Of a stretch of DNA of 59,610 nucleotides, positions 7,453 through 58,263 are shown piece by piece (the stretch's first letter is position 1; every line of letters starts with the position of its first letter). A model generated the notes under the pieces. It was not told where the DNA came from. It saw nothing but the letters and a program-made list of their open reading frames with translations, and did not search any database. The DNA lies in assembly GCA_025201805.1 (NCBI GenBank), contig MU619282.1, positions 158,930 through 218,539 on the forward strand, read 5' to 3'. The position numbers and the translations under genes were made by a program. Origin of the DNA: Parasitella parasitica (Eukaryota > Mucoromycota > Mucoromycetes > Mucorales > Mucoraceae).

Positions 7453-7709
7453 GTAAAACTTAATACCGCCAAATGGAAATACCTTGGACATAAATAAGAT
7501 ATTGAAATCAGCCTCTGTTCCATGCAACGTCAATGTTTAATTATTTATCTCTAACGATATTATTGCAACAAAGCTTGAAAATTTCGACAAAATAACGAGG
7601 AAAGAAGGAAGCACCGTCATCAACAACAGTGGTGTTTTAGTTGCGGTGAGTGTAGGTTACTTTTCAAGCTGACTTGTCGTGGACCTTCAATTGTTTAGTC
7701 CAACCTGTA
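7453..7709 (+). pseudogene. Left fragment of a host gene split by element A
   Basis: A protein-like stretch with a clean intron: donor GTGAGT at 7646, CTGAC branch-like site, acceptor TTTAG ending at 7698. The exon then begun (7699-7709) is cut by the TA at 7708-7709 where element A starts. On the other side of element A (18478) the exon resumes and meets another donor at 18498. Joined, the pieces stay in phase with the next exon of the gene at 18478-19441. Upstream it is also cut by the Helitron end at 7452. The coding frame left of 7646 is uncertain. Confidence 0.4.
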
Positions 7710-9671
7710 CAGTCAAACCTATGGAAATTGGCGTTTTCACAAAAATAATTGTCACTTTCATAAAAATGATTAACCGAAAGGCAAAAATAATTGGCGGAAA
7801 TTGAAAAATAAATGTCACATGCTCAATTCTTTTTGTAATTTTGGCCAAGAATATTTGTCCATGCCAAGTAATTAAATTAGGCGGTTAAGTTACAATATTG
7901 TCCCTTTTCTTCGTTACTGAATTTTGTTATTTTTTTTTCTACTAAAAACATTTTCTAACAATGAGCACATTTTTTTATGAAGATGGACAAGACAACATTT
8001 ATAATGAGCAAGGAGAAATCGTTACGATCCGATGGAGGATGTTCTTACACAAATTGATGATCCGAATGTAATTCTTGAAACAATTACTAGCCAGAAAACC
8101 TATTTAAGTGTTAAACGCCTGGAGAAAACTGTTGAAGAGTCTCCTTCTAAAAAGCAACTGAAGACTAAAGTACCAGATTTGGATAGACCATACAAAAACT
8201 ATAGCGACTTTACCAGAGAGACGTTTATAGATCGTATGATTGAAAAGCCTGAAGAACGTGGGTTGGTGACTAAGGTTGCAAATGACCTAAATATCAATTA
8301 TCGCACTGCGTTAAGATGGTGGAATAGCTATAAAGAAACAGAGGAGATTCCATATAAGAAATCCGAAGAAAACAGTGGCCCTAAAAGCTCGTTCACTGCT
8401 AAACATAACGAGTATCTACAGGGTCTATTGGATAATGATCCTCAACTATTTTCGGATGATATTATGAAAAGCTTGACTGAACAATTTGAAGGCTTCACCA
8501 TCTCAAAGTCGCAACTAAATAATCATTTACGTAATACAATGCTTATCACTATCAAGAAACCATTGTTTGAGCCTGAAATAAGAAATTCACCAGAAAACAT
8601 GGAGACAAGATTTGAGTGGTTTATGAAATGGAAGGACTCTAATCTTGATTTTACAAAGAATTGTGTTTTCATTGATGAAGCCGGATTTCACATTAACATG
8701 AGAAATAATTGGGCAAGATCAAAAAAGGGTAGCCCTGCTATAGTAAAACGACCAAAAACTAGAGCGATAACACATACTATTATTGGTGCTATCCATTCAT
8801 CTAGTGTTGTTCATGTTGTGATGAAAAAACCTCCACCAAGAAAAGAAAAGCAATCTATTAGTAAAAAGAGAAAAGCTAATAGTGGAACAAAAAGAATTGT
8901 AGCTGAAGTTGATTTAGAGGATCCAGAGTTTGAAGATCCTACTGATAATAAACCAGTAGCAAAAGGCACGACTACTGCGCATTTCGTTAAATTCATGAAT
9001 GCGCTTCTTGATATAATGGACCTTGATGAAAATTTGAAGGGAAATTATATTGTAATGGATAACGCCTCATTTCATAAATCCAAGCCAATGATACGAAAAA
9101 TCGAACGTAGAGGTTATAAAGTGATGTACTTACCTCCGTACTCACCTGAATTGAATCCTATTGAACAGTTCTGGGGAGTAGTCAAAGGCAAAATGAAGCG
9201 TGATCGATTATTGGCTGAAGAAAATTTATCTGATCGAATTGCTGATGCCTGCAATGATGTCCTTATCAGCGACCTCTATGGTTTCTGTAATCACTCAAAA
9301 CGTCAGATTATTAAATGTTATAAAAAAACACCATTCTAATATATACATATACATTAAATAAACAATTATTTTTAAAACGGCAAACATATATGATTAACTC
9401 TAGCCCCAAATTTAACTACTTGATATGGACACTTTTTAGAGATTCATTTGGTCTACAGTATTTTGTGTTTAAAAAATATAATGCTTGGTGGAACTAAATC
9501 TGTTTCGTAGATCACTCCAATACAAACGTTTCAGAAGAGAGTATAATTGTTAGGCCATTAGTGAATGGGAACCTAACCCAAAGATAACAAGTCATCATTG
9601 CACTGTGGGGACGGCAGTTTTTTTTTTTGGCGAGATGATCTTTGAATTAAACTGGGGCGAAATAGAGAATT
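7710..9671 (+). repeat. Element A left terminal inverted repeat (arm A1)
   Basis: Identical, as far as compared by eye at both ends, in the homopolymer run and throughout the coding region, to the reverse complement of 16513-18474. It contains a 5' region with repeated AAAAATAATTG-type motifs, the transposase gene, and about 330 bases of 3' sequence ending at GAGAATT. Confidence 0.85.
8032..9339 (+). CDS. Tc1/mariner-like transposase, DD34E (element A, copy 1)
   Basis: A 435-residue transposase that would cut and rejoin element ends at TA. Residues about 55-115 hold a helix-turn-helix (VANDLNINYRTALRWW). A second DNA-binding helix region follows (ISKSQLNNHLR). The catalytic core has VFIDEAGFHINM (first Asp), IVMDNASFHKS (second Asp) and PPYSPELNPIEQFW (Glu), with 34 residues between the last two. 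Basic KKRK clusters near residue 280 may be a nuclear signal. The ATG at 8032 may not be the original start. An ATG at 7961 opens MSTFFYEDGQDNIYNEQGE, matching the start of the element B transposase, but is out of frame by one base at about 8024-8030. Identical to the copy at 16845-18152. Confidence 0.9.
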   Translation: MEDVLTQIDDPNVILETITSQKTYLSVKRLEKTVEESPSKKQLKTKVPDLDRPYKNYSDFTRETFIDRMIEKPEERGLVTKVANDLNINYRTALRWWNSYKETEEIPYKKSEENSGPKSSFTAKHNEYLQGLLDNDPQLFSDDIMKSLTEQFEGFTISKSQLNNHLRNTMLITIKKPLFEPEIRNSPENMETRFEWFMKWKDSNLDFTKNCVFIDEAGFHINMRNNWARSKKGSPAIVKRPKTRAITHTIIGAIHSSSVVHVVMKKPPPRKEKQSISKKRKANSGTKRIVAEVDLEDPEFEDPTDNKPVAKGTTTAHFVKFMNALLDIMDLDENLKGNYIVMDNASFHKSKPMIRKIERRGYKVMYLPPYSPELNPIEQFWGVVKGKMKRDRLLAEENLSDRIADACNDVLISDLYGFCNHSKRQIIKCYKKTPF

Positions 9672-10477
9672 AGGCTGGTATAACGTGTCCTTGGGGATAG
9701 AAAGAAGTGTTGCCTTTTAAGTAATTTTGAATAAAGCTTCCAAAGTAGAGGTATTTTAAATTTAATAAAAATTAAGTTTCTTAAAACAGCCCCAATGGAG
9801 TTGCTGTGTGGTTTCCTATTTCCAAATGAAAGAAGGGTTTTAATACTTCCTGCTTATTAAAAGTAATAGTAAAGGATTACTAGAATACTCAAAGCAACGT
9901 AAATGTGTTTTAGAATTCCTAATAGCGGTGCTTTCTTGTGCTAGCCATTTCTTTAAAGCAACTTAATAGCAATGGAAAATATAAAGAAAGGAGATAACGT
10001 ATTATTTTACTTTTTATACAAAAAAAAGAAATATTATCTGTTTTGATTGATCGTGGCCGCAAAAAAAATTAAGGTAATAGAATGCTGGAAGTATCAGCCG
10101 AAATACCATTCGTTAGTGAAGATTACCCAGAATGTGGCGCCAGTTTCAGATTTTCATTTAATAATGCCATAGCGAAGATCATGTTCGTCATAAAAGATTA
10201 ATCACAATAGTCAGCTTGAAGTGTAACAAATGTAATAATGCCCTTAAAAATCATACTTTTTTTGCTAGAAAAGGACTTGACCTTGGCCTCAAAAGAAAGG
10301 AGGTTTGCAAAAAGCACAATAATAGATAAAACAGCCAAAGCGAGATATTGTGATTAGTAATTATGTAAACTGCCTTTCTCATATTTTTATGCTTACCAAA
10401 CGTATGATCTAAAAAAGCCTAAAGGCAATGATCAATACCGTGATGAATACAAGGAGATAAAAAACCACCAGGTTTTA

Positions 10478-10712
10478 CTGAGGGCCTAGGGTATTACACG
10501 CACCTAGTATCAGACATAACGGGTCCAGCCTAACGGCCTTCAAGCCTCACGCAATGCTGAATTCCAAAGTCATCGCTAATTGGAGCCAAAGCCTTCAACT
10601 CAAATAGCCTCCAGTCACATTAAATAAAGGGCCAAGGGTATTACGCGCACCTTGTACCAAACATAACGGGTCCAGCATCACAGCCTTCGAGCCTCACGCT
10701 ATGCTGGATTCC
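10478..10712. repeat. Pair of about 87-bp direct repeats
   Basis: The units 10478-10564 and 10624-10712 share GGGTATTAC.CGCACC, ACATAACGGGTCCAGC, GCCTTC.AGCCTCACGC and ATGCTG.ATTCC with about 15 percent differences. The spacer is about 60 bases. They do not fold into an evident tRNA, and no function is known. Confidence 0.75.
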
Positions 10713-10987
10713 TCTATTTGAACTAACTGCTATGTGAATTGTCAGAGAAAAAAGAAAAAAGTTTTAGTGGTTTAAACGGGGGTATACTCACAATTTTTTT
10801 CGCATTCTTTTATCATTCGTCATCATTAAAGATTTTTGAATACCGCTTAGAAGTCTGACGTCATAATTTTTGACATAATTCTATTTTTCTCAAAGAAAAA
10901 AAAAACCTTTCATCACACATTTTTAAGTGAAAAAAAGCCTACATGTCTGATCTATCAAATGGTAATCTCTTATATTAAAATGATAGA

Positions 10988-11107
10988 AATCGTAAAAAAC
11001 AGTCCTCAGCGCTTAAAATTGAATCGTAAAAAACAGTCCTCAGCGCTTAAAAATGAATCGTAAAAAACAGTCTCCAGCGCTTAAAGTTGAATCGTAAAAA
11101 ACAGTCA
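10988..11107. repeat. 34-bp tandem repeat, about 3.5 units
   Basis: The unit starts AATCGTAAAAAACAGTC and continues CTCAGCGCTTAAAATTG, repeated three times with one or two changes, then a partial unit. The flank TAGAAATCGTAAAAAACAGTC is echoed at about 12652-12676, just past a Helitron-like end. Confidence 0.85.
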
Positions 11108-11249
11108 TATTTTTTCATTCAATGCCATCTTTCATGCACCAAGTGTTACAGTTAAAAGATGGCCATACTGCTCACTCAAGATTTGGAATTTTTCTTAACT
11201 GCAATGATTCATCTGTGTGTTCTTTGAGACCAAGATCTCTTGGAACAAG

Positions 11250-12394
11250 CCTTATTTATCTAGGATGAAGCATCGATGAACAGCCGTGATGTTCTCGAAA
11301 CAGTAGACAGGACATTTAAAGATGTCATGAAGCAATATTTAAATAGACGAAAGACAGGCTGATTTTCCCTTTGGAGGAAAATTTATTGTATTTGTTGGCA
11401 ATTTTGGTCAAATTTTACCTATGGTTCCTCATGGCAGTAAAGAAGAAATCATTCAAGCATGCATTCTGACCTCAAATCTTTGGCTGCATGTACAAGTACT
11501 CAGCTTAACAACAAGCATGAGAGATTAGCAAGCCATGTCATTACATAACGCTGCATTGGCCACCTCATTACAAAATTTTTGCTGATTTCTTGCTTGCTAT
11601 TGGCAATGGCTCCTTCCCTATTCAGCCCAACACAGCTGACTTGATTCGTATTCCGTAATAAAATATGCTTCTGCCTGGCAATGTTATTTCTGTCCTTTGC
11701 CAACATGTATGTGTCTACAACAACTTTGCGCTCACTGCTGATACCACCCGCGACAACTTAATGTCGAAGGCTATCCTGACACCGACCAATGCTTTTGTTT
11801 CTAAATTAAATGACTTCATGCTTGAGAAGTTTCCCGGTGAATTCACTGAATTCCTGAGTACTGACACGGCGTTGAGTGAAGACGATGCTTTAGAGCAGCC
11901 ATCAAAATTCATGAATTTTCTCAACTGTGGTAGTCTTCCACCTCACCAGCTCAAGTTGAAAATTGGCTCGCCAATCATGATGCTCAGAAACATCGATCCT
12001 GCTCATGGTGTTTATAATGGTACAAGGCTTATTTGTCGAGCATCCACAAGGAACACTATCCAGGCTGAAGTTGCAACTGGAACTTATCAACGCAATGTTG
12101 TGCTCATACCCAGAGTTACCTTTAAACTCGATAGTTGAGCAAGTCGTCGTAGAATTCAAGCGTTGTCAGTTCCCTGTCAGACCAGCTTTTGCCATGACGA
12201 TAAATAAATCGCAAGGTCAAACTCTGGACTTTGTAGGGCTGTATCTTCCTGTCTCAATTTTCTCGCATGGCCAATTATATGTCGCTCTATCTCGAGTTAA
12301 AAGGCCAGATGACATCTCAATTATCATCAACCCCAAGCCAAGAAGGAGTATATGTACATCAAACGTTGTCTATACTGAGATTTTTCAAAATTAA
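11250..12394 (+). pseudogene. Helitron Pif1-like helicase, C-terminal part, degenerate
   Basis: Contains late helicase motifs of Helitron proteins in more than one frame: VDRTFKDVM, VFVGNFGQILPMVP, then in ORF 11665-12138 ILTPTNAFVSKLN, NFLNCGSLPPHQLKLKIG and MLRNIDPAHGVYNGTRL, and in a third frame (ending 12394) FAMTINKSQGQTLDF and SHGQLYVALSRV. Frame changes occur near 11660 and near 12135, with several stops before 11660. The Rep domain and Walker A are missing. It ends just before the AT-rich stretch and terminus at 12506-12645, so it is the 3' end of a Helitron. Confidence 0.8.
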
Positions 12395-12505
12395 CCAACT
12401 TCGAGGATTTAAACAAAAAATACCAAATAATCATAATATATCGTATCTTTATACAATACGTAAATGTTATTTCCACTCATTGTTTCTTATTTCGTTTGAT
12501 TTAGC

Positions 12506-12645
12506 ACTGTGTTAAGTGGGACAGCCCGCTGCAGGCGCGAGCTGTGTACCCCCCAATAAGAACGAAGGTCGAAAAATATCACCGAAGCGAAGCGAAGGTC
12601 GATTTTTTTCACCATAGTTCGGGGGGTGTTAAAAAGCTCGTAATA
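12506..12645 (+). mobile_element. Helitron-type 3' end, second type, copy 1
   Basis: GGGACAGCCCGCTGCAGG, then CGAGCTGTG, then ACCCCCC pairs with GGGGGGT about 70 bases later, around repeated GAAGCGAAGCGAAGG sequence. The block ends near AGCTCG before T. The same block, with the preceding TCTTTATACAATAC..AAATG region, recurs at 13973-14117. It follows the helicase relic directly. Confidence 0.6.
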
Positions 12646-13086
12646 TATTTAAAATAATAGAAATCATAAAAAACAGTCAAAATCGTTGCTAATTTTCAGT
12701 CACTTATACCCCAACTAATTTAAGAAATTGTGTGTGTGTCCCGAGATATTACAAGCACTTCGTGTAATAAAACAGAAGTGGTTCCAAAGCAATCTGTGTT
12801 TGCATCAGTCCAAAATGTACAAGAAGTTTACTTGGTAAGCCTTTGAAGTAAAACCAACTACGGATTACTTTGAGTACATTCTAAGAAGTCCCGATTATTA
12901 TCAACATTAGAAAGTAGCATGTTGTAGCAAACGATTAGAATTAGTATAAATACGATAGAATTATTCATTCAATAAAAAATTACTTTTCATGATATACATA
13001 AATCATCCGAACCCACACTAAGAATATCACATAAACGGGTCATAGTCGTAGATCTCATAGGAATTGTCCACTCAATCCTGTCAACC
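12646..13086. other. Spacer between two Helitron fragments, no gene seen
   Basis: AT-rich and stop-dense. It begins with an echo of the 34-bp repeat unit (ATCATAAAAAACAGTC at about 12661-12676). Confidence 0.4.
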
Positions 13087-13905
13087 TTGCTAATGCTGAA
13101 AATATTGCTGCCTCCACCAATGTTAACGACAATGTAGATTTACTTGCTCTCTTTTTCTTCAAAGTGCATTAATTTTAGTTTCTCTGTTAATAGGTCGATG
13201 CCATGGATGTCGACATGGAACCCGAATTGCCAAATGTTGAGGATTGTCAAAATACCCAGGTTCGATACGCAGCATGTGGCAACAGCTTGGACATTCACGC
13301 AGGACAAACCGCCTTTGTCCATTGAATGCCACCAGACAAACGGAGCGTAGCTTTTTCAAACTTGCCATGCAGACTGCTCATCTTCCTGAGCGACATGACT
13401 TAGTTCGAATGTCTGTTAGATACTTTTCTTGCAATGCATGAGAGAGGAGTTTCGACCGCCAAATTCCAATTATGCTGTGGTTCAGGCCGATATGTTCTTC
13501 CACCTTTATAAGCTTCTATACCACGAGTCATTGCTGATTTGGTCCAAAACAACAATCGTAGAAGCGTAGAGCTCAAGAAAAATGTGCGCTCTTATAACAA
13601 CGCACTTTGTTTCACCTCAAAGGGGAATAACTTGGATAGCAGTGTTCCAAATTCACGAAGTGGTGCTTGCGCATTCAGAATCCATGGAAGCATTTACCAT
13701 AAAATTGGGTCCTTACTTCCAACGGAAAATAGTTCGCCTGCATTTGCTCAGATCTATGTTTATGATGCCAGCAATGATACTAGCAATGATACCAGCAACA
13801 GACATTTAGTAGCCAGTCATGTAGATGCTCAGACTTTGGAGGAGCTACAACGCTTAATGTATCGAATCAATACAATCGCGCCAGAGACTAAAACTCAAAG
13901 AATTA
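13087..13905 (+). pseudogene. Helitron protein N-terminal part, degenerate
   Basis: Fragments typical of the region before the Helitron Rep domain: LCCGSGRYVLPPL, then in ORF 13539-13934 VRSYNNALCFTSKGN, ACAFRIHGSIYHKIGSLLP, FAQIYVYDA and LDAQTLEEL-like (VDAQTLEELQRLMYRIN). It has internal stops and frame changes before 13539. At about 13905 the coding sequence runs straight into the same AT-rich stretch that follows the helicase C-terminus at 12430. The Rep and helicase regions are therefore deleted and the N-terminus is joined to the 3' end. Confidence 0.75.
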
Positions 13906-13972
13906 TATATGTCATATCTTTATACAATACATAAATGTTATTTCCACTCAATATGTTTTATTTCGTTTGATT

Positions 13973-14117
13973 TAGCATTGCATTATGTGGGACAGCCCGC
14001 TGCAGGCGCGAGCTGTGCACCCCCCAATTAGAACGAAGGTCGAAAAATATCACCGTAGCGAAGCGAAGGTTGATTTTTTTCACCGTAGTTCGGGGGGGGG
14101 GGTGTAAAATAGCTCGT
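13973..14117 (+). mobile_element. Helitron-type 3' end, second type, copy 2
   Basis: Near-identical to 12506-12645 (GGGACAGCCCGCTGCAGG, GAAGGTCGAAAAATATCACC, then a long G run and AGCTCG before T). It ends only about 35 bases before the open frame of the gene at 14150. Confidence 0.6.
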
Positions 14118-14149
14118 TTTTTTTAAAAAAACTTAATCTTACTGCTATG

Positions 14150-16079
14150 ATAATTAAAAAATACCCAACTCGTAGCAATAGACACTTATATATCTGATCA
14201 TAAGACTCCTTCTCTGGCAGCCTTTGTCTTGGACCACCAAAGTCTTGTTTCCACATATATTGGACAATTTGACAAAATTACAGACGCCAAGGCTAATCTT
14301 GAGAGAAAAATGAGGACTGCATACTTTGCCAAGAATCCCAAGAGAAAACGAGGTCCAGGCTTAAAGGTGAATCTTGAAAAACTGTGGTCATCTTCTAAGC
14401 TAGATGATTCAGTCGAAATCGAAGGAAATAAAACTTTAGAGGCATCTATTAAGGCTAGTGGACGAAAGGCTAGAAAGCGACTAGAGGTATTTATTGAATA
14501 AGGCTCACTTACATCCGGTTTATGTTAATTTTTTCTTCTAATAGAATAAAAATGCGACAAAAGAGAAAGAGACAAAAGAGAATGAAAGTGAACAATCCAG
14601 TGAAGTAGAAAGCTCTTGTATGAGTGATGAAGAAGAGGAAACAGTGGATGAAATTGCATATAAACTTAATAATGAAGATGCCACTGAATTCGAGCAAGCC
14701 TTACTTTCTAATACTGACTCACCACATATACTGAAGAATGGTCACGACTTTAGCAATAGCTTCAAGAGATTTCAATTAAAATCATATCAGGAAGCAAGGT
14801 CTTCTGGTTTATTTATTAACGCCAATGTTCATGAAATATTGTAAGTAGGCTTTATATGCATCATTCATTAGTACAGATTCTGAATGGCACCAATTTAGAT
14901 CTTTATATCACACAGTATTGTTGCGAAAAGACCAGCATGACCAAGCAATGTCAAATGTAATTGGACTCGACAATATTCAAGAATTTCACACGGAACTCTT
15001 AAATAAATATGTTAACCAAGATATAAAGATGGAAAAGAATCTATTCAATGAACTAACCGACATCTTCAGAGTGAGTATCTAATAACGACATCTGACTTAC
15101 TTTGACAGCTTACATCCTTTTTTTTTAGAGCGTAAATGAAAAATCTGATCGTAAAGCACTTAAAGTAAAATTACATAATTTATACGAAGCTGCCGACCCA
15201 TTGGATTCCAAGATAATTGATATATTGATTAACCTGTAAGTACAACATACATGACCCAATAAAATATTTCTGTTTGGAGGTCTAACATGTAATACATAGT
15301 ATAAACAAGTTACCTGGCAATATTCTCATAAATGAAGTGGTTAAAGAATTCGAATTAATAACTAATTATCTTGATACGGTCCTCAGTCCTATATTTCATG
15401 ATCCCCAAAAGAAACTGATGTACAGATGGTAGGTGCAAACGCAAAGATCGTGTGATCATCATGCCAAAAAATATATACGCTAACAGCTTTTCTGTAACTA
15501 GGCTAAATAAAGCAACGGAGTCTTCGGGCGATAGATATCCTGATGGTGGCAGTTGCATTGTCAGTCAAAGACAAATTTCTTGTTCTACTGGCTTCTGTGA
15601 AGTGAAAGCAGATTATATGAAAAACAATACTGTTGGTACACATCTAGATTTACTCAGATTATGCATATTCGGCAAGGATACTATTGACAATGAAGATGTG
15701 GAGAATGTTGTCTTATTGCAAGCAGTTGGTAAATTTAGTATTTGTTACTTGCTATTGCAAAATATATTTACATATAGATTTTCATGATATAGGACACCGT
15801 GTGATTGTATATCTGTACCAACAACATGATGGTGGTTTTTATTCTGCCTTTGAAGTTGATAGTATTGAAGTTCCCAAATCGATCCTTGAGTTACCTGGTT
15901 TCATAATGAAATTGGATGATATTAAACGCTTGATCAACCTCTATGAGCTCTTCTGTGCTACGAAGAAGGACAGGTCAAATTTTTTCAAGCGCAAAATACC
16001 CTCACCAAACATTTATGAAATGAACACAATCATCAATACCCGCAAACCTAAGAAGGTAAAGACTTCTCTTGAATTTTAA
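14150..16079 (+). CDS. Seven-exon cargo gene with PD-(D/E)XK-like signature, 5' end missing
   Basis: Spliced exons: 14150-14486, 14545-14840, 14872-15070, 15131-15235, 15300-15428, 15502-15728, 15793-16079. All six introns have GT..AG ends and keep phase, and no stop interrupts the joined frame, so the retained part looks intact. There is no in-frame ATG near the start. The frame is open back to about 14150 and a Helitron end lies at 14117, so the first exon(s) were probably cut off. The product has an acidic, Ser-rich stretch (SCMSDEEEETVDE), a helical middle, and near the C-terminal third GDRYPDGG, then GFCEVKAD, spaced as in PD-(D/E)XK nucleases. The family is not one I can name. Two relatives follow at 18478 and 21446. 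A nuclease role is inference. Confidence 0.7.
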
Positions 16080-16512
16080 TTACCCTTCTTCTTTCTTCCA
16101 TCACTTTTTACCCTATGTACACAAACACATACGTTTGTACAAGCAGCCAGAATATTATGTACTCCTTAAAAAACGCTTCTTTTTTTTTGCAAATTTAATT
16201 TGTAAAATAAAAAAGTTTACCGTATCACCAATGTTTTTGTTGACTGTCAGCGATCTTTTTCTATTCTATTTATGCCCTATTGAGTTTTGACACTTAAAAA
16301 TTGTGGTCTGATCGGTGTGGGATAAATGAAATTGTCTAATAAAGTTAAAATTAAGTAAAGAAAAAAAAGTCGTCTTAGCCCATATATCTCAATGACTTTA
16401 TCTCAATGACTTTGAAATAGTCTCACGTTAGTTCAATCTCGTCTTAGTGTTGCATTAGTTTTTCTCAACCCTTCTGGGGAAACGTATGACAATTTTTTAA
16501 ATTGTCTTTGTA
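16080..16512. other. Element A cargo, right end, no gene seen
   Basis: 3' flank of the cargo gene, T-rich then AT-rich, ending at the inner border of arm A2. An ORF at 16069-16290 is low-complexity and overlaps the gene end. Confidence 0.4.
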
Positions 16513-18474
16513 AATTCTCTATTTCGCCCCAGTTTAATTCAAAGATCATCTCGCCAAAAAAAAAAACTGCCGTCCCCACAGTGCAATGATGACTTGTTAT
16601 CTTTGGGTTAGGTTCCCATTCACTAATGGCCTAACAATTATACTCTCTTCTGAAACGTTTGTATTGGAGTGATCTACGAAACAGATTTAGTTCCACCAAG
16701 CATTATATTTTTTAAACACAAAATACTGTAGACCAAATGAATCTCTAAAAAGTGTCCATATCAAGTAGTTAAATTTGGGGCTAGAGTTAATCATATATGT
16801 TTGCCGTTTTAAAAATAATTGTTTATTTAATGTATATGTATATATTAGAATGGTGTTTTTTTATAACATTTAATAATCTGACGTTTTGAGTGATTACAGA
16901 AACCATAGAGGTCGCTGATAAGGACATCATTGCAGGCATCAGCAATTCGATCAGATAAATTTTCTTCAGCCAATAATCGATCACGCTTCATTTTGCCTTT
17001 GACTACTCCCCAGAACTGTTCAATAGGATTCAATTCAGGTGAGTACGGAGGTAAGTACATCACTTTATAACCTCTACGTTCGATTTTTCGTATCATTGGC
17101 TTGGATTTATGAAATGAGGCGTTATCCATTACAATATAATTTCCCTTCAAATTTTCATCAAGGTCCATTATATCAAGAAGCGCATTCATGAATTTAACGA
17201 AATGCGCAGTAGTCGTGCCTTTTGCTACTGGTTTATTATCAGTAGGATCTTCAAACTCTGGATCCTCTAAATCAACTTCAGCTACAATTCTTTTTGTTCC
17301 ACTATTAGCTTTTCTCTTTTTACTAATAGATTGCTTTTCTTTTCTTGGTGGAGGTTTTTTCATCACAACATGAACAACACTAGATGAATGGATAGCACCA
17401 ATAATAGTATGTGTTATCGCTCTAGTTTTTGGTCGTTTTACTATAGCAGGGCTACCCTTTTTTGATCTTGCCCAATTATTTCTCATGTTAATGTGAAATC
17501 CGGCTTCATCAATGAAAACACAATTCTTTGTAAAATCAAGATTAGAGTCCTTCCATTTCATAAACCACTCAAATCTTGTCTCCATGTTTTCTGGTGAATT
17601 TCTTATTTCAGGCTCAAACAATGGTTTCTTGATAGTGATAAGCATTGTATTACGTAAATGATTATTTAGTTGCGACTTTGAGATGGTGAAGCCTTCAAAT
17701 TGTTCAGTCAAGCTTTTCATAATATCATCCGAAAATAGTTGAGGATCATTATCCAATAGACCCTGTAGATACTCGTTATGTTTAGCAGTGAACGAGCTTT
17801 TAGGGCCACTGTTTTCTTCGGATTTCTTATATGGAATCTCCTCTGTTTCTTTATAGCTATTCCACCATCTTAACGCAGTGCGATAATTGATATTTAGGTC
17901 ATTTGCAACCTTAGTCACCAACCCACGTTCTTCAGGCTTTTCAATCATACGATCTATAAACGTCTCTCTGGTAAAGTCGCTATAGTTTTTGTATGGTCTA
18001 TCCAAATCTGGTACTTTAGTCTTCAGTTGCTTTTTAGAAGGAGACTCTTCAACAGTTTTCTCCAGGCGTTTAACACTTAAATAGGTTTTCTGGCTAGTAA
18101 TTGTTTCAAGAATTACATTCGGATCATCAATTTGTGTAAGAACATCCTCCATCGGATCGTAACGATTTCTCCTTGCTCATTATAAATGTTGTCTTGTCCA
18201 TCTTCATAAAAAAATGTGCTCATTGTTAGAAAATGTTTTTAGTAGAAAAAAAAATAACAAAATTCAGTAACGAAGAAAAGGGACAATATTGTAACTTAAC
18301 CGCCTAATTTAATTACTTGGCATGGACAAATATTCTTGGCCAAAATTACAAAAAGAATTGAGCATGTGACATTTATTTTTCAATTTCCGCCAATTATTTT
18401 TGCCTTTCGGTTAATCATTTTTATGAAAGTGACAATTATTTTTGTGAAAACGCCAATTTCCATAGGTTTGACTG
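16513..18474 (-). repeat. Element A right terminal inverted repeat (arm A2)
   Basis: Reverse-complement twin of 7710-9671. The run of eleven A/T bases near the inner border is also the same length in both arms. The outer end is GGTTTGACTG followed by TA. Confidence 0.85.
16845..18152 (-). CDS. Tc1/mariner-like transposase, DD34E (element A, copy 2)
   Basis: Encodes exactly the same 435 residues as 8032-9339, on the opposite strand, so both genes point into the element. The upstream out-of-frame start is present here too (ATG at 18221-18223 on the minus strand), with the same one-base offset. Identity of two 1.96-kb copies indicates a very recent duplication, gene conversion, or formation of the arms in one event. 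Confidence 0.9.
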   Translation of the reverse strand: MEDVLTQIDDPNVILETITSQKTYLSVKRLEKTVEESPSKKQLKTKVPDLDRPYKNYSDFTRETFIDRMIEKPEERGLVTKVANDLNINYRTALRWWNSYKETEEIPYKKSEENSGPKSSFTAKHNEYLQGLLDNDPQLFSDDIMKSLTEQFEGFTISKSQLNNHLRNTMLITIKKPLFEPEIRNSPENMETRFEWFMKWKDSNLDFTKNCVFIDEAGFHINMRNNWARSKKGSPAIVKRPKTRAITHTIIGAIHSSSVVHVVMKKPPPRKEKQSISKKRKANSGTKRIVAEVDLEDPEFEDPTDNKPVAKGTTTAHFVKFMNALLDIMDLDENLKGNYIVMDNASFHKSKPMIRKIERRGYKVMYLPPYSPELNPIEQFWGVVKGKMKRDRLLAEENLSDRIADACNDVLISDLYGFCNHSKRQIIKCYKKTPF

Positions 18475-18477
18475 TAC

Positions 18478-51924: not shown

Positions 51925-51925
51925 A

Positions 51926-53576
51926 CAGTGCTCACGGTACCAATTTGCGGTTTTATATTTTTTTTTGCGGGTTTACAAACTTCCAATTTGCGGGTTTTTC
52001 ATTGGCCAATTTGCGGTTTTTTTATTCTCACTTTACGGGTTTGCTAGATCCCAATTAGCGTTTTTATTTTTTCAATTTACGTTTTACTTTACAAAATAAA
52101 CAGCTATTATGTTTTCAATTTCAGGCAAGATCATCTTCGAAGATGGCCAAGGAAATCTCTATAATGAGGATGGAAAAGAGGCAATGGACTGGGAAGAAGA
52201 TGTAGATCCCTACAATTTAGAAAACCTAACTAACTTGACTCAGTATAAAGAACATCAACCAGTTGAATTAGATTCAAATGATCCCGCTTTGGATAAACGA
52301 ATGGAAGACATTCAAACCAAAGTTTCAACGGGAAATACTGCAGTTAAATACAAAACATATTCCGTTGACCAAAAAACTTTGTTTTTGTATTATATTAAGA
52401 TCAAACTTTTTAAAGCTGCAAAAGCTGCAAAATTGTCTGGAGTAAACGAACGCACTGGACAGCAATGGGCGAAAAGACTTAGGGAAGATCCTGAATGGGA
52501 TATATATGAAAAAAACACGAACAAAGTTAACCGAAAATCCAGTCAGCTTCAAGAGGAGCATAAGCTGTATTTGATAAACTACTTTGATGAGTTTTCTCAG
52601 GCACGCACAAAAGACGCAGTAGATAGTTTGACTGAAAACTTCGAAAACTTTAGTTTAAAAGAAACAGTCGTTGGAGAGTTTATCTCAAGGGAGTGCAATC
52701 TTTCTATCAAGAGCGTAACCCGTCACCCTAAAGCTCGAAATAGCCCAGAGAAGCTTAAAGCTCGTCGTGAGTGGGTAGAGTTATGGTCTGAAACCTCAAT
52801 GGATTTTAATACCAATTGCATTTTCATCGATGAAAGTGCTTTTGATATAAACATGAGGCCACCTACTGCAAGATCGGTTAGAGGAACACCGGCTGTTGTT
52901 GTCACGCCTTCTACTAAGGCTATTAGCCATACTATTCTTGGTGCTGTTTCTGCATTGGGAATAATAAACATTGAGATACGAGTTCCAGTACCACCAAAAA
53001 AAGTAAAAGTAGTAGGTAGCCGTAAAAGAAAATCAACTGCTGTAAAGAAGCCTTCTTTTGGAGGAACTAATTCCGGTCACTACCTTAATTTTATTAAGAA
53101 AACTCTCGATCAAATGGATAAATATCCTGAGATGAAAGGATTTTATCTCATTATGGATAACTCTCCTATTCATGATAAGAAAGACGGTGATATTGACAAT
53201 ATTATTGAATCTAGAGGCTATAAATGTGTTTATCTTCCTCCTTATTCCCCAGAACTTAACCCCATTGAGCAGTTCTGGGCAGTAGTTAAGAGTAAAGTTA
53301 GAAGAAGCCAGTTTGGGAACACTGAGGATCTTAAGACCAGGATCAGTGAAGCATGTAATGAAATTCCTTTCAAACATCTTCAAGGTTTTGTTAAACACTC
53401 ATTCGATACTTTTGAAAGATGTTTGAACGAGGAACATATATAAAAAAAAATATTTTAATAAAACGTAATTTGAAAAAATAAAAACGCTAATTGGGATCTA
53501 GCAAACCCGTAAAGTGAGAATAAAAAAACCGCAAATTGGCCAATGAAAAACCCGCAAATTGGTACCGTGAGCACTG
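51926..53576 (+). mobile_element. 1651-bp Tc1/mariner-like transposon B1
   Basis: Terminal inverted repeats start CAGTGCTCACGGTACCAATT. Inside the ends, CAATTTGCGG-type units recur. The left end has one extra unit of about 45 bases compared with the right. One transposase ORF fills the middle. The right side is followed by TA (53577-53578). Confidence 0.9.
52109..53443 (+). CDS. Tc1/mariner-like transposase, D-D-36-E (element B, copy 1)
   Basis: 444 residues. An acidic N-terminus (KIIFEDGQGNLYNEDGKEAM) is followed by a helix-turn-helix (AAKLSGVNERTGQQWAKRL) and a second DNA-binding region (LKETVVGEFISREC). The catalytic core has CIFIDESAFDINM, LIMDNSPIHDKK and PPYSPELNPIEQFW, with 36 residues between the second Asp and Glu rather than the 34 in element A. 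A basic GSRKRKSTAVKK may be a nuclear signal. No stop or shift is present. Clearly related to the element A enzyme but far from identical. Same sequence as 56733-58067. Confidence 0.92.
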   Translation: MFSISGKIIFEDGQGNLYNEDGKEAMDWEEDVDPYNLENLTNLTQYKEHQPVELDSNDPALDKRMEDIQTKVSTGNTAVKYKTYSVDQKTLFLYYIKIKLFKAAKAAKLSGVNERTGQQWAKRLREDPEWDIYEKNTNKVNRKSSQLQEEHKLYLINYFDEFSQARTKDAVDSLTENFENFSLKETVVGEFISRECNLSIKSVTRHPKARNSPEKLKARREWVELWSETSMDFNTNCIFIDESAFDINMRPPTARSVRGTPAVVVTPSTKAISHTILGAVSALGIINIEIRVPVPPKKVKVVGSRKRKSTAVKKPSFGGTNSGHYLNFIKKTLDQMDKYPEMKGFYLIMDNSPIHDKKDGDIDNIIESRGYKCVYLPPYSPELNPIEQFWAVVKSKVRRSQFGNTEDLKTRISEACNEIPFKHLQGFVKHSFDTFERCLNEEHI

Positions 53577-54069
53577 TACATCTTTTTGGCAACTTATTTG
53601 TCACTTTTCTTGATGAAATAGAATATACAGTGAATCCATTTTCACATTGCGAACTAGCTGAAAATTTTCATACATGTGACGAAGTTAAATCCAATCAAAT
53701 GCAGAAATAAGCTTTTTACTAAAATACAGTCCGGCTGGTGGACATTGTCGGTTACAAGAAAGATAACTGGATTTAATTTGTTAATTAATATAAAAACAAT
53801 TGTCGGTCAAATACGAATAAAATATAATAAGAGGAAAAGATGCTGCTAGGCTTAATTCATAGTGATTAGCCATGATTTAACTAACAGAATCATACAGTGT
53901 TTCGGTTTTCGTTAAAATTAATAGATATTTATTCAATTACAAGCTTTGTCAAGACACTTCTTCAACTGAATTTAGAAAAATAAATAAAAAATTTAAGCCA
54001 TAACTTATAATTATCATTGCAAAAAGCTATATAATAAACCCAAGTACAAACTGTTTGGGCGTAAAATGT
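53577..54069. repeat. Inner flank of element B, left copy
   Basis: 493 bases after transposon B1 that recur, inverted, at 56107-56599 next to transposon B2. AT-rich, no ORF. Because it lies outside the short transposons yet is duplicated with them, the duplication cannot be two independent insertions. Confidence 0.85.
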
Positions 54070-54086
54070 CACAAAGATCTATGGTC

Positions 54087-54200
54087 GCTTACGAATGAAC
54101 GTTTTTGATAATTTTATATGCTATTTTTATAGATGCTATACAACTGTGGTCACGGAGAAAATTCATAGCGTGTCTTTCCAATACTTTAATGTTTTACCAT
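54087..54200. repeat. Cargo-flanking direct repeat, left copy
   Basis: About 114 bases (GCTATACAACTGTGGTCA and TTTAATGTTTTACCA included) that recur at 55801-55915 in the same orientation with about 15 percent differences. The pair brackets the cargo gene. Confidence 0.8.
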
Positions 54201-54350
54201 AAATATACATATACTATTATTAATATTAGAGAACATATTAAATGAAATAATTTATTTTTGTGATATAAATTTAACAGCAAACAAATAGTGTTTCTCTTAA
54301 CAATAAGAATAATATTCGTTGTGAGAGGACTTAAAATGATAAACGAAGCA

Positions 54351-55222
54351 TTAAAAATCCTCTAATCGTCTTAACTTTTTCTGTAATACCTCAACCTCCT
54401 GTAATTTTCTTTCGATTTGTTTTTTAATTTTTGATTTAGCCTTTTCAATATCCTCGTTATAGTCGTCACTTGTACTAATAATAGTAGAAGCTGTCGTATT
54501 TGGATTGGTATTTGTTGATGTTGTACTAGATTCATGATTATTTGCATCAATTGTAGAAATGACAGGCGTATCGACGTTACGGTTGCTTGGATTGGTATTT
54601 GTTGATGCTGTACTAGATTCATGATTATTTGCATCAGTTTTAGAAATGACAGGCGTATCGACGTTACGGTTACTTGGATTGGCATTAGATGTTGAATTGT
54701 TGCTGAAACTTGCGGTGGAATCATTGCTAATGTTAGTGCCAAGAGCGATAGAGCAATGGCACATCAATTTTGAGGATGAGCTAATTCGTGGTTGTACTTG
54801 AAAATTACTCTAAATAAGAATGTTAAGTATACTCTAATTTCACTTAATAGTAAATAGTGAAGCCTTACATAATTAATAGGCTTGTTATCTAATAGACTTG
54901 GGTTTACTCCTATTCCTTCAAGTCTTTTGCATATAAGCTTTTTCTGAATACAATAAACATAGTAAAAAGTCGAAGCATCAAGTTCAGATTCGAAATGAAT
55001 GAGCGCAAAGCTACTATCAAAAGTTAAATCTTAGTCAAATACTGTGATATTTTGCTTACTTTTTTTGCTCCGTTTTGATAACATGTAGGGGCTTAACAAT
55101 AGAACATTCTTTCAGAATTTGTTTTAATCGTTCACTTTTGATGCCTGTTATGCTATCACCACAAAGCTGAACGTGGCATTTTCTGTTACCACACGTCTCG
55201 CACATGAAAGAAATCTGTGGGA
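54351..55222 (-). CDS. Element B cargo gene: Cys-rich start, Ser/Thr repeats, coiled-coil end
   Basis: Exons on the minus strand. About 55222-55061: Cys-rich, CETCGNRKCHVQLCGDSITG. About 55027-54870: SSFALIHFESELDASTFYYV, LEGIGVNPSLLDNKPINY. About 54812-54351: SNFQVQPRISSSSKLMCHCS, two 26-28 residue repeats containing NPSNRNVDTPVIS and TDANNHESST, then a Lys/Glu-rich coil EVLQKKLRRLEDF. A possible first exon with an ATG at about 55292 has a GTAAGT donor. The join between the first two exons is off by one with the obvious splice sites, so the gene may be damaged there. The pattern of Cys and His suggests a small metal-binding module. The family is unknown to me. Confidence 0.5.
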
Positions 55223-55497
55223 AAGCAAAAAAAAATTAATTTTTTTTTTTTTAAATGAGTTTTATTTGTCGCACGTAAAGATGGACTTACAGACCATCAG
55301 AAGCGGTGCTCAACAATGTGAAAATATGGATAAGGATAATTATACTGAAAAGAAAAAGATAAAATAAATCTAAGATAATAGCGCGAGGAGAAAAAAAATT
55401 AATGTAGTTTTGTTCTTGCTATTTCACAAGACTGTAACTCAAAATAAGTGATGACGTAATTAAATTAATTTTATTTATAGTGACCTAGCGTTTTTTT

Positions 55498-55644
55498 TTA
55501 CTTTCGTGGTAGGCATTTTTTTATTTCTTTTGAGTCATCTTTCGTGGGTGGCATTAGGTTTACTTTCGTGGTAGACATTTTTTTATTTCTTTTGGGTCAT
55601 CTTTCGTGGGTAGCATTAGGTTTACTTTCGTGGTAGACATTTTG
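55498..55644. repeat. 62-bp tandem repeat, about 2.4 units
   Basis: The unit begins ACTTTCGTGGTAGRCATT and contains a second, shorter echo CTTTCGTGGGTRGCATTAGG, so it is itself an internal repeat. Confidence 0.9.
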
Positions 55645-55800
55645 GATATGAATTGCTAATCACCTCCTCGTGGTCATATCTGGACAACTACTATTTCTAT
55701 GGAAGTAGTAGGCTAAGTATTAGCATTTTGATTAGTTTAGCGCTTTTTTTTTTTAAATAAAGTTTATTGGTTATTGTTAGAGTTAGAAAGACAAATGATT

Positions 55801-55915
55801 GCTTACAAACATATGATTTTGGTAATTTTATATATACTGTTTTTATAGACGCTATACAACTGTGGTCATGGAGAAAATCCACAGCATGTCTTTCCAATGC
55901 TTTAATGTTTTACCA
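55801..55915. repeat. Cargo-flanking direct repeat, right copy
   Basis: Partner of 54087-54200 (see there). Confidence 0.8.
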
Positions 55916-56106
55916 CACATAAAATGGGAAGGTTCAAAAGTCCAGAATTTCTTTTTTACAGTAGTGTCTATACTTAATATATTAGGCACAGCGTCTCATT
56001 GCTAAATTATTTCAGGGGTCAAGAATGAGTGCAGAGAAATGAATAGTAAAATTTATTTTATAATCCTTACGCTAGTCTTTTAATTACTTCTTCAGATCCA
56101 TTTTTT

Positions 56107-56599
56107 ACATTTTACGCCCAAACAGTTTGTACTTGGGTTTATTATATAGCTTTTTGCAATGATAATTATAAGTTATGGCTTAAATTTTTTATTTATTTTT
56201 CTAAATTCAGTTGAAGAAGTGTCTTGACAAAGCTTGTAATTGAATAAATATCTATTAATTTTAACGAAAACCGAAACACTGTATGATTCTGTTAGTTAAA
56301 TCATGGCTAATCACTATGAATTAAGCCTAGCAGCATCTTTTCCTCTTATTATATTTTATTCGTATTTGACCGACAATTGTTTTTATATTAATTAACAAAT
56401 TAAATCCAGTTATCTTTCTTGTAACCGACAATGTCCACCAGCCGGACTGTATTTTAGTAAAAAGCTTATTTCTGCATTTGATTGGATTTAACTTCGTCAC
56501 ATGTATGAAAATTTTCAGCTAGTTCGCAATGTGAAAATGGATTCACTGTATATTCTATTTCATCAAGAAAAGTGACAAATAAGTTGCCAAAAAGATGTA
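56107..56599. repeat. Inner flank of element B, right copy (inverted)
   Basis: Reverse complement of 53577-54069; ends with TA (56598-56599) before transposon B2. Confidence 0.85.
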
Positions 56600-58250
56600 C
56601 AGTGCTCACGGTACCAATTTGCGGGTTTTTCATTGGCCAATTTGCGGTTTTTTTATTCTCACTTTACGGGTTTGCTAGATCCCAATTAGCGTTTTTATTT
56701 TTTCAAATTACGTTTTATTAAAATATTTTTTTTTATATATGTTCCTCGTTCAAACATCTTTCAAAAGTATCGAATGAGTGTTTAACAAAACCTTGAAGAT
56801 GTTTGAAAGGAATTTCATTACATGCTTCACTGATCCTGGTCTTAAGATCCTCAGTGTTCCCAAACTGGCTTCTTCTAACTTTACTCTTAACTACTGCCCA
56901 GAACTGCTCAATGGGGTTAAGTTCTGGGGAATAAGGAGGAAGATAAACACATTTATAGCCTCTAGATTCAATAATATTGTCAATATCACCGTCTTTCTTA
57001 TCATGAATAGGAGAGTTATCCATAATGAGATAAAATCCTTTCATCTCAGGATATTTATCCATTTGATCGAGAGTTTTCTTAATAAAATTAAGGTAGTGAC
57101 CGGAATTAGTTCCTCCAAAAGAAGGCTTCTTTACAGCAGTTGATTTTCTTTTACGGCTACCTACTACTTTTACTTTTTTTGGTGGTACTGGAACTCGTAT
57201 CTCAATGTTTATTATTCCCAATGCAGAAACAGCACCAAGAATAGTATGGCTAATAGCCTTAGTAGAAGGCGTGACAACAACAGCCGGTGTTCCTCTAACC
57301 GATCTTGCAGTAGGTGGCCTCATGTTTATATCAAAAGCACTTTCATCGATGAAAATGCAATTGGTATTAAAATCCATTGAGGTTTCAGACCATAACTCTA
57401 CCCACTCACGACGAGCTTTAAGCTTCTCTGGGCTATTTCGAGCTTTAGGGTGACGGGTTACGCTCTTGATAGAAAGATTGCACTCCCTTGAGATAAACTC
57501 TCCAACGACTGTTTCTTTTAAACTAAAGTTTTCGAAGTTTTCAGTCAAACTATCTACTGCGTCTTTTGTGCGTGCCTGAGAAAACTCATCAAAGTAGTTT
57601 ATCAAATACAGCTTATGCTCCTCTTGAAGCTGACTGGATTTTCGGTTAACTTTGTTCGTGTTTTTTTCATATATATCCCATTCAGGATCTTCCCTAAGTC
57701 TTTTCGCCCATTGCTGTCCAGTGCGTTCGTTTACTCCAGACAATTTTGCAGCTTTTGCAGCTTTAAAAAGTTTGATCTTAATATAATACAAAAACAAAGT
57801 TTTTTGGTCAACGGAATATGTTTTGTATTTAACTGCAGTATTTCCCGTTGAAACTTTGGTTTGAATGTCTTCCATTCGTTTATCCAAAGCGGGATCATTT
57901 GAATCTAATTCAACTGGTTGATGTTCTTTATACTGAGTCAAGTTAGTTAGGTTTTCTAAATTGTAGGGATCTACATCTTCTTCCCAGTCCATTGCCTCTT
58001 TTCCATCCTCATTATAGAGATTTCCTTGGCCATCTTCGAAGATGATCTTGCCTGAAATTGAAAACATAATAGCTGTTTATTTTGTAAAGTAAAACGTAAA
58101 TTGAAAAAATAAAAACGCTAATTGGGATCTAGCAAACCCGTAAAGTGAGAATAAAAAAACCGCAAATTGGCCAATGAAAAACCCGCAAATTGGAAGTTTG
58201 TAAACCCGCAAAAAAAAATATAAAACCGCAAATTGGTACCGTGAGCACTG
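56600..58250 (-). mobile_element. 1651-bp Tc1/mariner-like transposon B2
   Basis: Inverted twin of 51926-53576, with TA on both sides (56598-56599 and 58251-58252) and the same ends and repeats. Confidence 0.9.
56733..58067 (-). CDS. Tc1/mariner-like transposase, D-D-36-E (element B, copy 2)
   Basis: Encodes the same 444 residues as 52109-53443. It points into the element, toward the cargo, as does the other copy. Intact, so the element may still be able to supply its own transposase. Confidence 0.92.
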   Translation of the reverse strand: MFSISGKIIFEDGQGNLYNEDGKEAMDWEEDVDPYNLENLTNLTQYKEHQPVELDSNDPALDKRMEDIQTKVSTGNTAVKYKTYSVDQKTLFLYYIKIKLFKAAKAAKLSGVNERTGQQWAKRLREDPEWDIYEKNTNKVNRKSSQLQEEHKLYLINYFDEFSQARTKDAVDSLTENFENFSLKETVVGEFISRECNLSIKSVTRHPKARNSPEKLKARREWVELWSETSMDFNTNCIFIDESAFDINMRPPTARSVRGTPAVVVTPSTKAISHTILGAVSALGIINIEIRVPVPPKKVKVVGSRKRKSTAVKKPSFGGTNSGHYLNFIKKTLDQMDKYPEMKGFYLIMDNSPIHDKKDGDIDNIIESRGYKCVYLPPYSPELNPIEQFWAVVKSKVRRSQFGNTEDLKTRISEACNEIPFKHLQGFVKHSFDTFERCLNEEHI

Positions 58251-58263
58251 TAAGGCTCTTATT

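What the first reader, a model, noticed from the sequence alone, without database searches (positions are those of the whole stretch)
7710..18474. A 10.77-kb Tc1/mariner-like element whose terminal inverted repeats are 1.96 kb long and each encode a transposase
Directly visible: two inverted blocks of exactly equal length (1965 bases with the shared TA), identical 435-residue ORFs pointing inward, outer ends CAGTCAAACCTATGG in mirror image, and TA on both outer sides. Typical Tc1/mariner elements are 1-3 kb with one central transposase gene and short repeats. Here transposase genes form the ends, and about 6.8 kb of other DNA, including a multi-exon gene, sits between. This would be a cargo-carrying Tc1/mariner-like design that I do not know as a described class.
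Basis: partly seen in the sequence, partly recalled or inferred. Interest (0 to 1): 0.93.

Follow-up and report, generated by a model that had tools for sequence, protein, structure and literature searches.

The report
Jumping gene with doubled transposase ends
In the genome of a fungus that appears to be Parasitella parasitica, a 10.8-kb jumping-gene-like unit has each of its two ends built from an identical copy of a transposase gene, enclosing another gene; similar doubled units occur elsewhere in the same genome, which suggests that simple jumping genes there have repeatedly turned into larger ones.

Summary
Arms 7707-9671 and 16513-18477 are 1965/1965 identical in inverse orientation, start at TA-CAGTCAAACC, and each carries an open 435-aa IS630/Tc1/mariner transposase. 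Each arm keeps a 37-nt remnant of an ordinary second end just behind the transposase; a relative (C83) still has that end complete, and a sister family consists of ordinary 1.88-kb elements. So the unit derives from a normal short element whose inner end was lost at the same point in both arms. It is not unique: seven further convergent transposase pairs within 12 kb were found in this genome, six with near-identical 1.5-2.4-kb arms. The spacer is nested Helitron-like debris plus a multi-exon gene of a Mucorales family, relatives of which lie inside three other pairs. In pair C128 one arm holds only the 3' end of that gene, so that arm is a copy of the other. Best reading: one end was copied onto the other (extended TIR, as proposed for Galileo), giving a composite-like unit. 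Movement of the whole unit is inferred, not shown. The nuclease guess for the inner gene rests on a motif only.

The parts
7708..7709 (.). left TA target-site dinucleotide
7710..7892 (+). left outer terminal inverted repeat (183 nt, starts CAGTCAAACCTATGG); length taken from the alignment to C83
   Evidence: TIR positions 1-183 align to the right end of C83; shorter pieces in C77, C20, C58, C128:55-58.5k, C3 and a 67-bp two-ended element on C25
7707..9671 (+). left arm (1965 nt, identical to the right arm)
8032..9339 (+). transposase ORF, 435 aa, IS630/Tc1/mariner; DDE triad read as D215, D343, E378
   Evidence: triad assigned by motif reading (recalled)
9395..9431 (-). remnant of the inner end: matches only the inner 37 nt of the 183-nt TIR; the outermost about 146 nt of this end are missing
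   Evidence: local score 37 against a maximum of 28 in 200 shuffles; C83 has the complete end here
9432..9671 (+). 240 nt behind the truncated inner end, shared by both arms; no other copy found in the genome
9963..10796 (+). spacer stretch also found on C77, there joined to a piece of the outer end (93% identity over 851 columns)
10965..14137 (+). stretch made largely of dispersed repeats, Helitron-like (Pif1 helicase pieces; includes direct repeat 12436-12626 / 13907-14097)
   Evidence: 'Helitron' by gene content, recalled
14178..16079 (+). multi-exon gene, 7 exons modelled (14178-14486, 14545-14840, 14899-15070, 15129-15235, 15300-15428, 15487-15737, 15778-16076, then stop); no start codon found
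16513..18477 (-). right arm (1965 nt)
16753..16789 (+). inner-end remnant in the right arm (mirror of 9395-9431)
16845..18152 (-). second, identical transposase ORF, 435 aa
18292..18474 (-). right outer terminal inverted repeat (183 nt)
18475..18476 (.). right TA target-site dinucleotide

Best explanation
A derived, composite-like Tc1/IS630/mariner unit. Shown: both ends are copies of one half-element (outer TIR, transposase, truncated inner TIR, 240 nt of further DNA), and the only complete ends detected are the two outer ones. Inferred formation: during repair of a break, for example after excision, one end of a larger element was repaired from the other end, entering through the short shared TIR and copying inward past the transposase, so that the inverted repeat grew from about 183 nt to 1965 nt with an arbitrary inner boundary; later gene conversion may keep the arms alike. 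Inferred function: transposase from either arm acts on the outer, TA-flanked ends and moves arms plus spacer as one unit. The spacer gene recurs in such units and is probably not random cargo; a nuclease role for its product is a guess from a motif.
For: Arms 1965/1965 identical, beginning at the terminal TA on both sides. The same truncated inner TIR and the same 240 nt behind it are in both arms, which two independent insertions of a complete element would not give. C83 keeps the complete second end at that place, behind the 3' part of a transposase; the sister family (C34, C65, C16; C35 rearranged) is 1.88 kb with 178-nt TIRs. Other families: W2 arms run about 498 nt and C25 arms 168 nt past a complete inner TIR. 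In C128 the arm boundary falls inside the spacer gene and the far arm holds a copy of only its 3' part (arm limits), which gives the direction of copying there. Within-pair transposase identity is 98-100% in 7 of 8 pairs, while the best match outside the pair in the set of 17 compared sequences is 40-72%; for W1 the nearest long DNA matches elsewhere are 79% (C20) and 85% (C83). Stop codons are shared by the two arms of C30, C66 and C45, so copying or conversion did not need a working transposase in that unit. 8 of 12 neighbouring pairs are convergent, 0.73 convergent expected by chance. C77 carries the outer end joined to spacer DNA at another site.
Against: No second complete copy of the unit, no empty site (flank searches), no reads or other strains, so movement as one unit is not shown. 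C77 is one-ended in the 4 kb read, with a 1.06-kb interruption inside its end piece. C30 looks like two nearly complete short elements. C87 has two different transposases (33% identical) behind 199-nt TIRs, so the model does not cover every pair. C45 arms do not begin with a recognisable terminus; W2 and C66 have TA on only one outer side. C55 carries DNA like the C25 spacer with its inverted inner flanks but no match to the C25 transposase arms at the two edges read, and no transposase hit on C55: that spacer may be an element of its own.
Confidence: 0.6

Rival explanations
1. Plain composite transposon as in bacteria: two complete short elements inserted independently in inverse orientation around unrelated DNA, each still able to move alone.
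For: Relatives are ordinary short elements; C30 shows two nearly complete short elements; a macrotransposon with an element at each end is reported for maize (passage).
Against: In W1 both arms lack the same outer part of the inner end and share 240 nt behind it; W2, C25 and C128 arms also run past the element into shared DNA. Independent insertions would stop at element ends. Arms resemble each other far more than the other copies compared.
Confidence: 0.17
2. A static inverted duplication: ends and spacer brought together by rearrangement and kept alike by gene conversion, never moved as a unit.
For: No second complete unit and no empty site; three of the similar pairs have disabled transposases with shared stops.
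Against: The arms of W1 begin exactly at TA plus terminus on both sides, both ORFs are open, and C77 has end plus spacer DNA at another site.
Confidence: 0.17
3. Assembly or amplification artefact (a false inverted join).
For: Perfect identity of the W1 arms; the window's second pair lies 1.4 kb from the contig end; reads were not available.
Against: Outer boundaries coincide with transposon termini and both flanks and both spacer edges differ; the six other near-identical pairs carry 1-18 mismatches between arms; the structure recurs in unrelated families.
Confidence: 0.06

Closest known systems
Short IS630/Tc1/mariner elements of Mucorales (the 1.88-kb sister family in the same genome; Tc1-MP1 of Mucor piriformis, passages of PMC9977792)
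   Same: transposase superfamily and TIRs; TA target recalled for the superfamily; presumed ancestor type
   Different: one transposase, TIRs of about 180 nt in the sister family, no spacer gene seen there
Galileo extended-TIR copies (P superfamily, Drosophila mojavensis; PMC3573991, passages seen)
   Same: TIRs lengthened by recruiting neighbouring internal sequence in inverted orientation; the authors suggest repair of one TIR with the other as template
   Different: other superfamily; there the longest TIRs are in copies without transposase, here the whole transposase gene lies inside the repeat at both ends
Maize Ac/Ds macrotransposon (one passage of PMC3260210)
   Same: two nearby elements supply the outer ends and mobilise the DNA between
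   Different: two separate elements; movement was shown there and is inferred here; here the inner ends are truncated
Bacterial composite transposons such as Tn10 and Tn5 (recalled, no call)
   Same: two inverted transposase-bearing ends around other genes
   Different: prokaryotic; flanking elements complete at both ends
Mariner elements with endonuclease and methyltransferase or Fanzor genes in algal viruses (PMC3627910, passages seen)
   Same: mariner-type transposase accompanied by further genes, one an endonuclease
   Different: single transposase; the spacer gene here is not shown to be a nuclease

Membership tests
IS630/Tc1/mariner superfamily | DDE transposase of the family | tested here: met
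   Pfam DDE_3 90.6 bits (cut-off 28.6); NCBIfam IS630 114.6 bits (cut-off 100); weak sequence matches to SETMAR (E 2.5e-5) and Sleeping Beauty (E 0.003) chains
IS630/Tc1/mariner superfamily | acidic triad with 34 residues between the last two | tested here: met
   D215, D343, E378 by motif position; assignment recalled, not structural
IS630/Tc1/mariner superfamily | TA target-site duplication | tested here: met
   TA on both outer sides; an empty site could not be shown
Composite transposon (two complete, separately mobile elements) | each arm has two intact ends | tested here: not met
   inner end reduced to a 37-nt remnant in both arms
Composite transposon / macrotransposon | outer ends move the whole unit | not testable with these tools
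   needs an excision or transposition assay or strain comparison
Extended-TIR (Galileo/foldback-like) structure | TIR longer than in relatives through recruited internal sequence | tested here: met
   1965 nt against 183 nt aligned in C83 and 178 nt in the sister family
Galileo (P superfamily) | P-element transposase | tested here: not met
   transposase is IS630/Tc1/mariner
PD-(D/E)XK nuclease (spacer gene product) | sequence motif E ... PD ... ExK | tested here: inconclusive
   in 8 aligned sequences of my choosing E 8 of 8, PD 7 of 8, ExK 8 of 8; motif recalled; no Pfam model above its cut-off (best 17.3 bits against 27, E 0.0037, an unrelated family)
PD-(D/E)XK nuclease (spacer gene product) | nuclease fold | tested here: inconclusive
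   models of relatives P0123 (pLDDT 40) and P0125 (pLDDT 56, motif region under 50); no convincing fold match for the latter

The most novel reading that the evidence does not exclude
Mucorales carry a recurring class of large Tc1/mariner units that arise again and again from short elements by copying one transposase-bearing end onto the other, enclose an accessory and possibly nuclease gene whose product takes part in the break repair that drives this copying, and spread as units between genera.
Probability: 0.15. Interest if true: 0.78.

Novelty: new variant of a known kind. Interest (0 to 1): 0.57.

Why it matters
Cut-and-paste elements of the Tc1/mariner type are usually small and carry one gene. 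A genome in which several unrelated families have doubled their transposase-bearing ends gives a natural series for studying how short elements become large gene-carrying ones, a step known mainly from bacteria. The spacer gene recurs in these units and has close relatives in other Mucorales genera, so the case also offers a test of whether larger units spread in early-diverging fungi, including a mycoparasite.

Tried and rejected
Rejected: a unique design (seven more convergent pairs); a simple two-insertion composite for W1 (shared truncation); random cargo only. I also dropped an argument of my own: the spacer gene being tail-to-tail with a transposase means nothing inside a convergent pair, because a gene between two convergent transposases is tail-to-tail with one of them in either orientation; of the 5 loci outside pairs only C74 is tail-to-tail, C178, C47, C83 and C27 are not.

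Searches returned no paper. For most papers I saw only the listing. None of the listings or passages that I saw describes a Tc1/mariner unit with a transposase gene inside both long TIRs; the library holds open-licence papers only, and the survey of fungal cut-and-paste transposons (10.1093/gbe/evx261) was not held. Absence in print is weakly tested.
Full report
CHECK. The two blocks are real. 7707-9671 equals the reverse complement of 16513-18477 at all 1965 positions and the match stops at once on both sides. The element proper is 7710-18474, between TA at 7708-7709 and 18475-18476. Each arm has a 435-aa ORF that Pfam and NCBIfam place in the DDE_3 / IS630 transposases above their cut-offs. 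A protein search found 493 relatives, of which 120 are listed: the best is 96% identical (an unnamed metagenome source), the next 85% (Rhizopus delemar).

SOURCE. The window lies in a 30.7-Mb, 232-contig genome on contig C46 of 218,539 bases. A protein named for Parasitella parasitica (P0130) comes from a contig of that same length and is 99% identical over 120 aa to my model of the spacer gene. I take the organism to be P. parasitica, order Mucorales; this is inference.

ANATOMY OF THE ARM. Fifty-five bases behind the transposase stop, at 9395-9431, the arm holds an inverted remnant of its own outer end: the inner 37 nt of the 183-nt TIR (local score 37 against at most 28 in 200 shuffles). 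The remaining 146 or so, with the CAGTCAAACC terminus, are missing, and 240 nt of other DNA follow before the arm ends. Copy C83 of the same family has the full end at the corresponding place (TIR positions 1-183), behind the 3' part of a transposase; its 5' half is absent and another transposase is nested inside. C34, C65 and C16 are ordinary 1.88-kb elements of a sister family with 178-nt TIRs, and C35 is a rearranged one. The ancestor was therefore probably an ordinary short element. A search of the W1 spacer with the TIR gave only scores in the shuffled range.

THE SPACER. 9963-10796 recurs on C77, joined there to pieces of the outer end (arm 1-63, then after about 1.06 kb of other DNA arm 130-231), with the transposase missing. 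The C77 match runs past the TIR into the transposase-side leader, so C77 may be an internal deletion of a unit with this order. 10965-14137 is largely made of repeats found in many places, with Pif1 helicase pieces, Helitron-like. 14178-16079 is a gene modelled with seven exons; no start codon was found. Relatives of its product: 5 proteins with the single sequence and 32 with a profile of 8 sequences (in both only the 8000 best candidates were scored), from Rhizopus, Mucor, Circinella, Helicostylum, Phycomyces, Benjaminiella, Cokeromyces and Parasitella plus unnamed sources. Identity to W1 over the parts matched is 83-93% for records of Rhizopus arrhizus, R. delemar, Mucor flavus, Circinella umbellata, Phycomyces nitens and Benjaminiella, but 34% for R. 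stolonifer, 28% for Mucor velutinosus and 47-75% for several others. In this genome, apart from a degenerate stretch on C39 (87% DNA over 363 nt) and short pieces, the relatives are about 24-35% identical. This may mean exchange between genera, but I had no yardstick of ordinary gene divergence.

RECURRENCE. The transposase search gave 108 hits, merged to 87 copies; the tool calls its counts lower bounds, and more distant families than this query reaches are not seen. Twelve pairs lie within 12 kb: 8 convergent, 3 direct, 1 divergent, against 2.9 expected in all; 8 convergent against 0.73 expected, P about 1e-6 under a uniform placement. The convergent ones are W1, W2, C25, C45, C66, C30, C128, C87. 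Arms differ by 0 of 1965, 2 of 2151, 2 of 1853, 18 (plus 19 gap columns) of about 1790, 7 of 1473, 5 (plus 5 gap columns) of about 1490 and 1 of 2374 positions in the first seven. C87 is different: only 199-nt TIRs match (98.5%), and its two transposases are 33% identical. W2 arms contain a complete short element plus about 498 nt, C25 arms one plus 168 nt. In C128 the arm boundary cuts the spacer gene, and its 3' part is repeated in the other arm. In C66, C30 and C45 stop codons are shared by both arms, with one further stop in the right arm of C66 and a shifted frame in the left arm of C45.

THE SPACER GENE AND TRANSPOSASES. The W1 spacer gene has relatives in the spacers of C25, C87 and C128 and in C83. 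The other four pairs (W2, C45, C66, C30) do not show it. A genome search gave 46 hits that I merged by hand to 22 loci; 9 of 22 lie within 5 kb of a transposase copy, 0.69 expected, P 1e-8. Five of these nine were known to me before the search; without them it is 4 of 17, P 0.002. Thirteen of 22 have no transposase of this list nearby. In an alignment of eight members E, PD and ExK are kept in 8, 7 and 8, the pattern of PD-(D/E)XK nucleases as I recall it. No Pfam model passed its cut-off, and two structure models of relatives were too weak to decide. I treat the nuclease as a guess.

HOW IT MOST LIKELY WORKS. The shared truncation and shared 240 nt in W1, the shared stops elsewhere, and C128's copied gene end all say that one arm is a copy of the other, bounded outside by the transposon end and inside at an arbitrary point. 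Repair of one TIR from the other, copying inward, is the mechanism suggested for Galileo (PMC3573991, passages seen). Here it would have carried the whole transposase along. Inference: the transposase, open in both arms, acts on the outer ends. Not shown: that the unit has ever moved as a whole.

AGAINST. No full second copy, no empty site, no reads. C55 carries DNA like the C25 spacer (pieces of 64-92% outside a dispersed repeat) with its inverted inner flanks, but no match to the C25 transposase arms at the two edges read, so that spacer may be an element of its own. C30 fits two separate insertions. W2 and C66 lack TA on one side. C45 arms have no recognisable terminus.

KNOWN RELATIVES AND NOVELTY. 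Parts of the picture are published: extended TIRs (Galileo), a macrotransposon (maize; PMC3260210, one passage), mariner elements with an accessory endonuclease (PMC3627910, passages). I found no paper with a transposase gene inside both long TIRs of a Tc1/mariner unit, but the searches were few, mostly seen as listings, and the library is partial. I call it a new variant of a known kind.

CHANGE OF ODDS. On checking I lowered the novel case from 0.20 to 0.15 because the tail-to-tail arrangement, on which it leaned, is uninformative inside convergent pairs.

Noticed in passing
window 51925-58251: A second inverted pair: 2151-nt arms (2 mismatches) around 2025 nt, each with a complete short Tc1-type element (366-aa open stretch compared) plus about 498 nt of shared inner DNA; the spacer holds 87-nt and 62-nt tandem repeats.
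   Followed up: partly
L047 (C87:119700-129600): Convergent pair whose two transposases are only 33% identical although the outer 199 nt match at 98.5%; a gene of the W1 spacer family lies between.
   Followed up: partly
L049 (C128:44800-54700): Arm boundary lies inside the spacer gene; the opposite arm holds a copy of only its 3' part.
   Followed up: yes
L046 (C66:61700-71600), also C122:73306-75611 and C49:110033-111721: Another spacer gene family (476-aa ORF in C66); outside C66 two further members lie tail-to-tail with a transposase, 205 and 704 bp away (2 of 17 loci, not significant).
   Followed up: partly
L045 (C45:28500-38000): Spacer ORF of 316 aa belonging to a multi-locus family (49 hits) with a D...EIQ stretch; not specially linked to transposases. 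The arms' inner boundary lies in a short tandem repeat.
   Followed up: partly
L052 (C25:245790-245856): A 67-bp stretch with two CAGTCAAACC ends, TA included on both sides: a very small derivative of the same family.
   Followed up: no
L061 and L062 (C55:70450-71450 and 65800-66800): DNA like the C25 spacer with its inverted inner flanks but without a match to the transposase arms at the edges read; it may be a separate element.
   Followed up: partly
L003-L006 (C35, C34, C65, C16): Copies of an ordinary 1.88-kb sister family with 178-nt TIRs, 99.5-99.9% alike to L004 over the aligned stretches, which looks recently active; C35 is rearranged at one end.
   Followed up: partly
proteins P0121, P0122, P0128, P0129, P0134, P0135, P0136: Products of the W1 spacer-gene family in other Mucorales records are 83-93% identical over the matched parts, while most relatives in this genome are about 24-35%; possible exchange between genera, no yardstick tested.
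   Followed up: no
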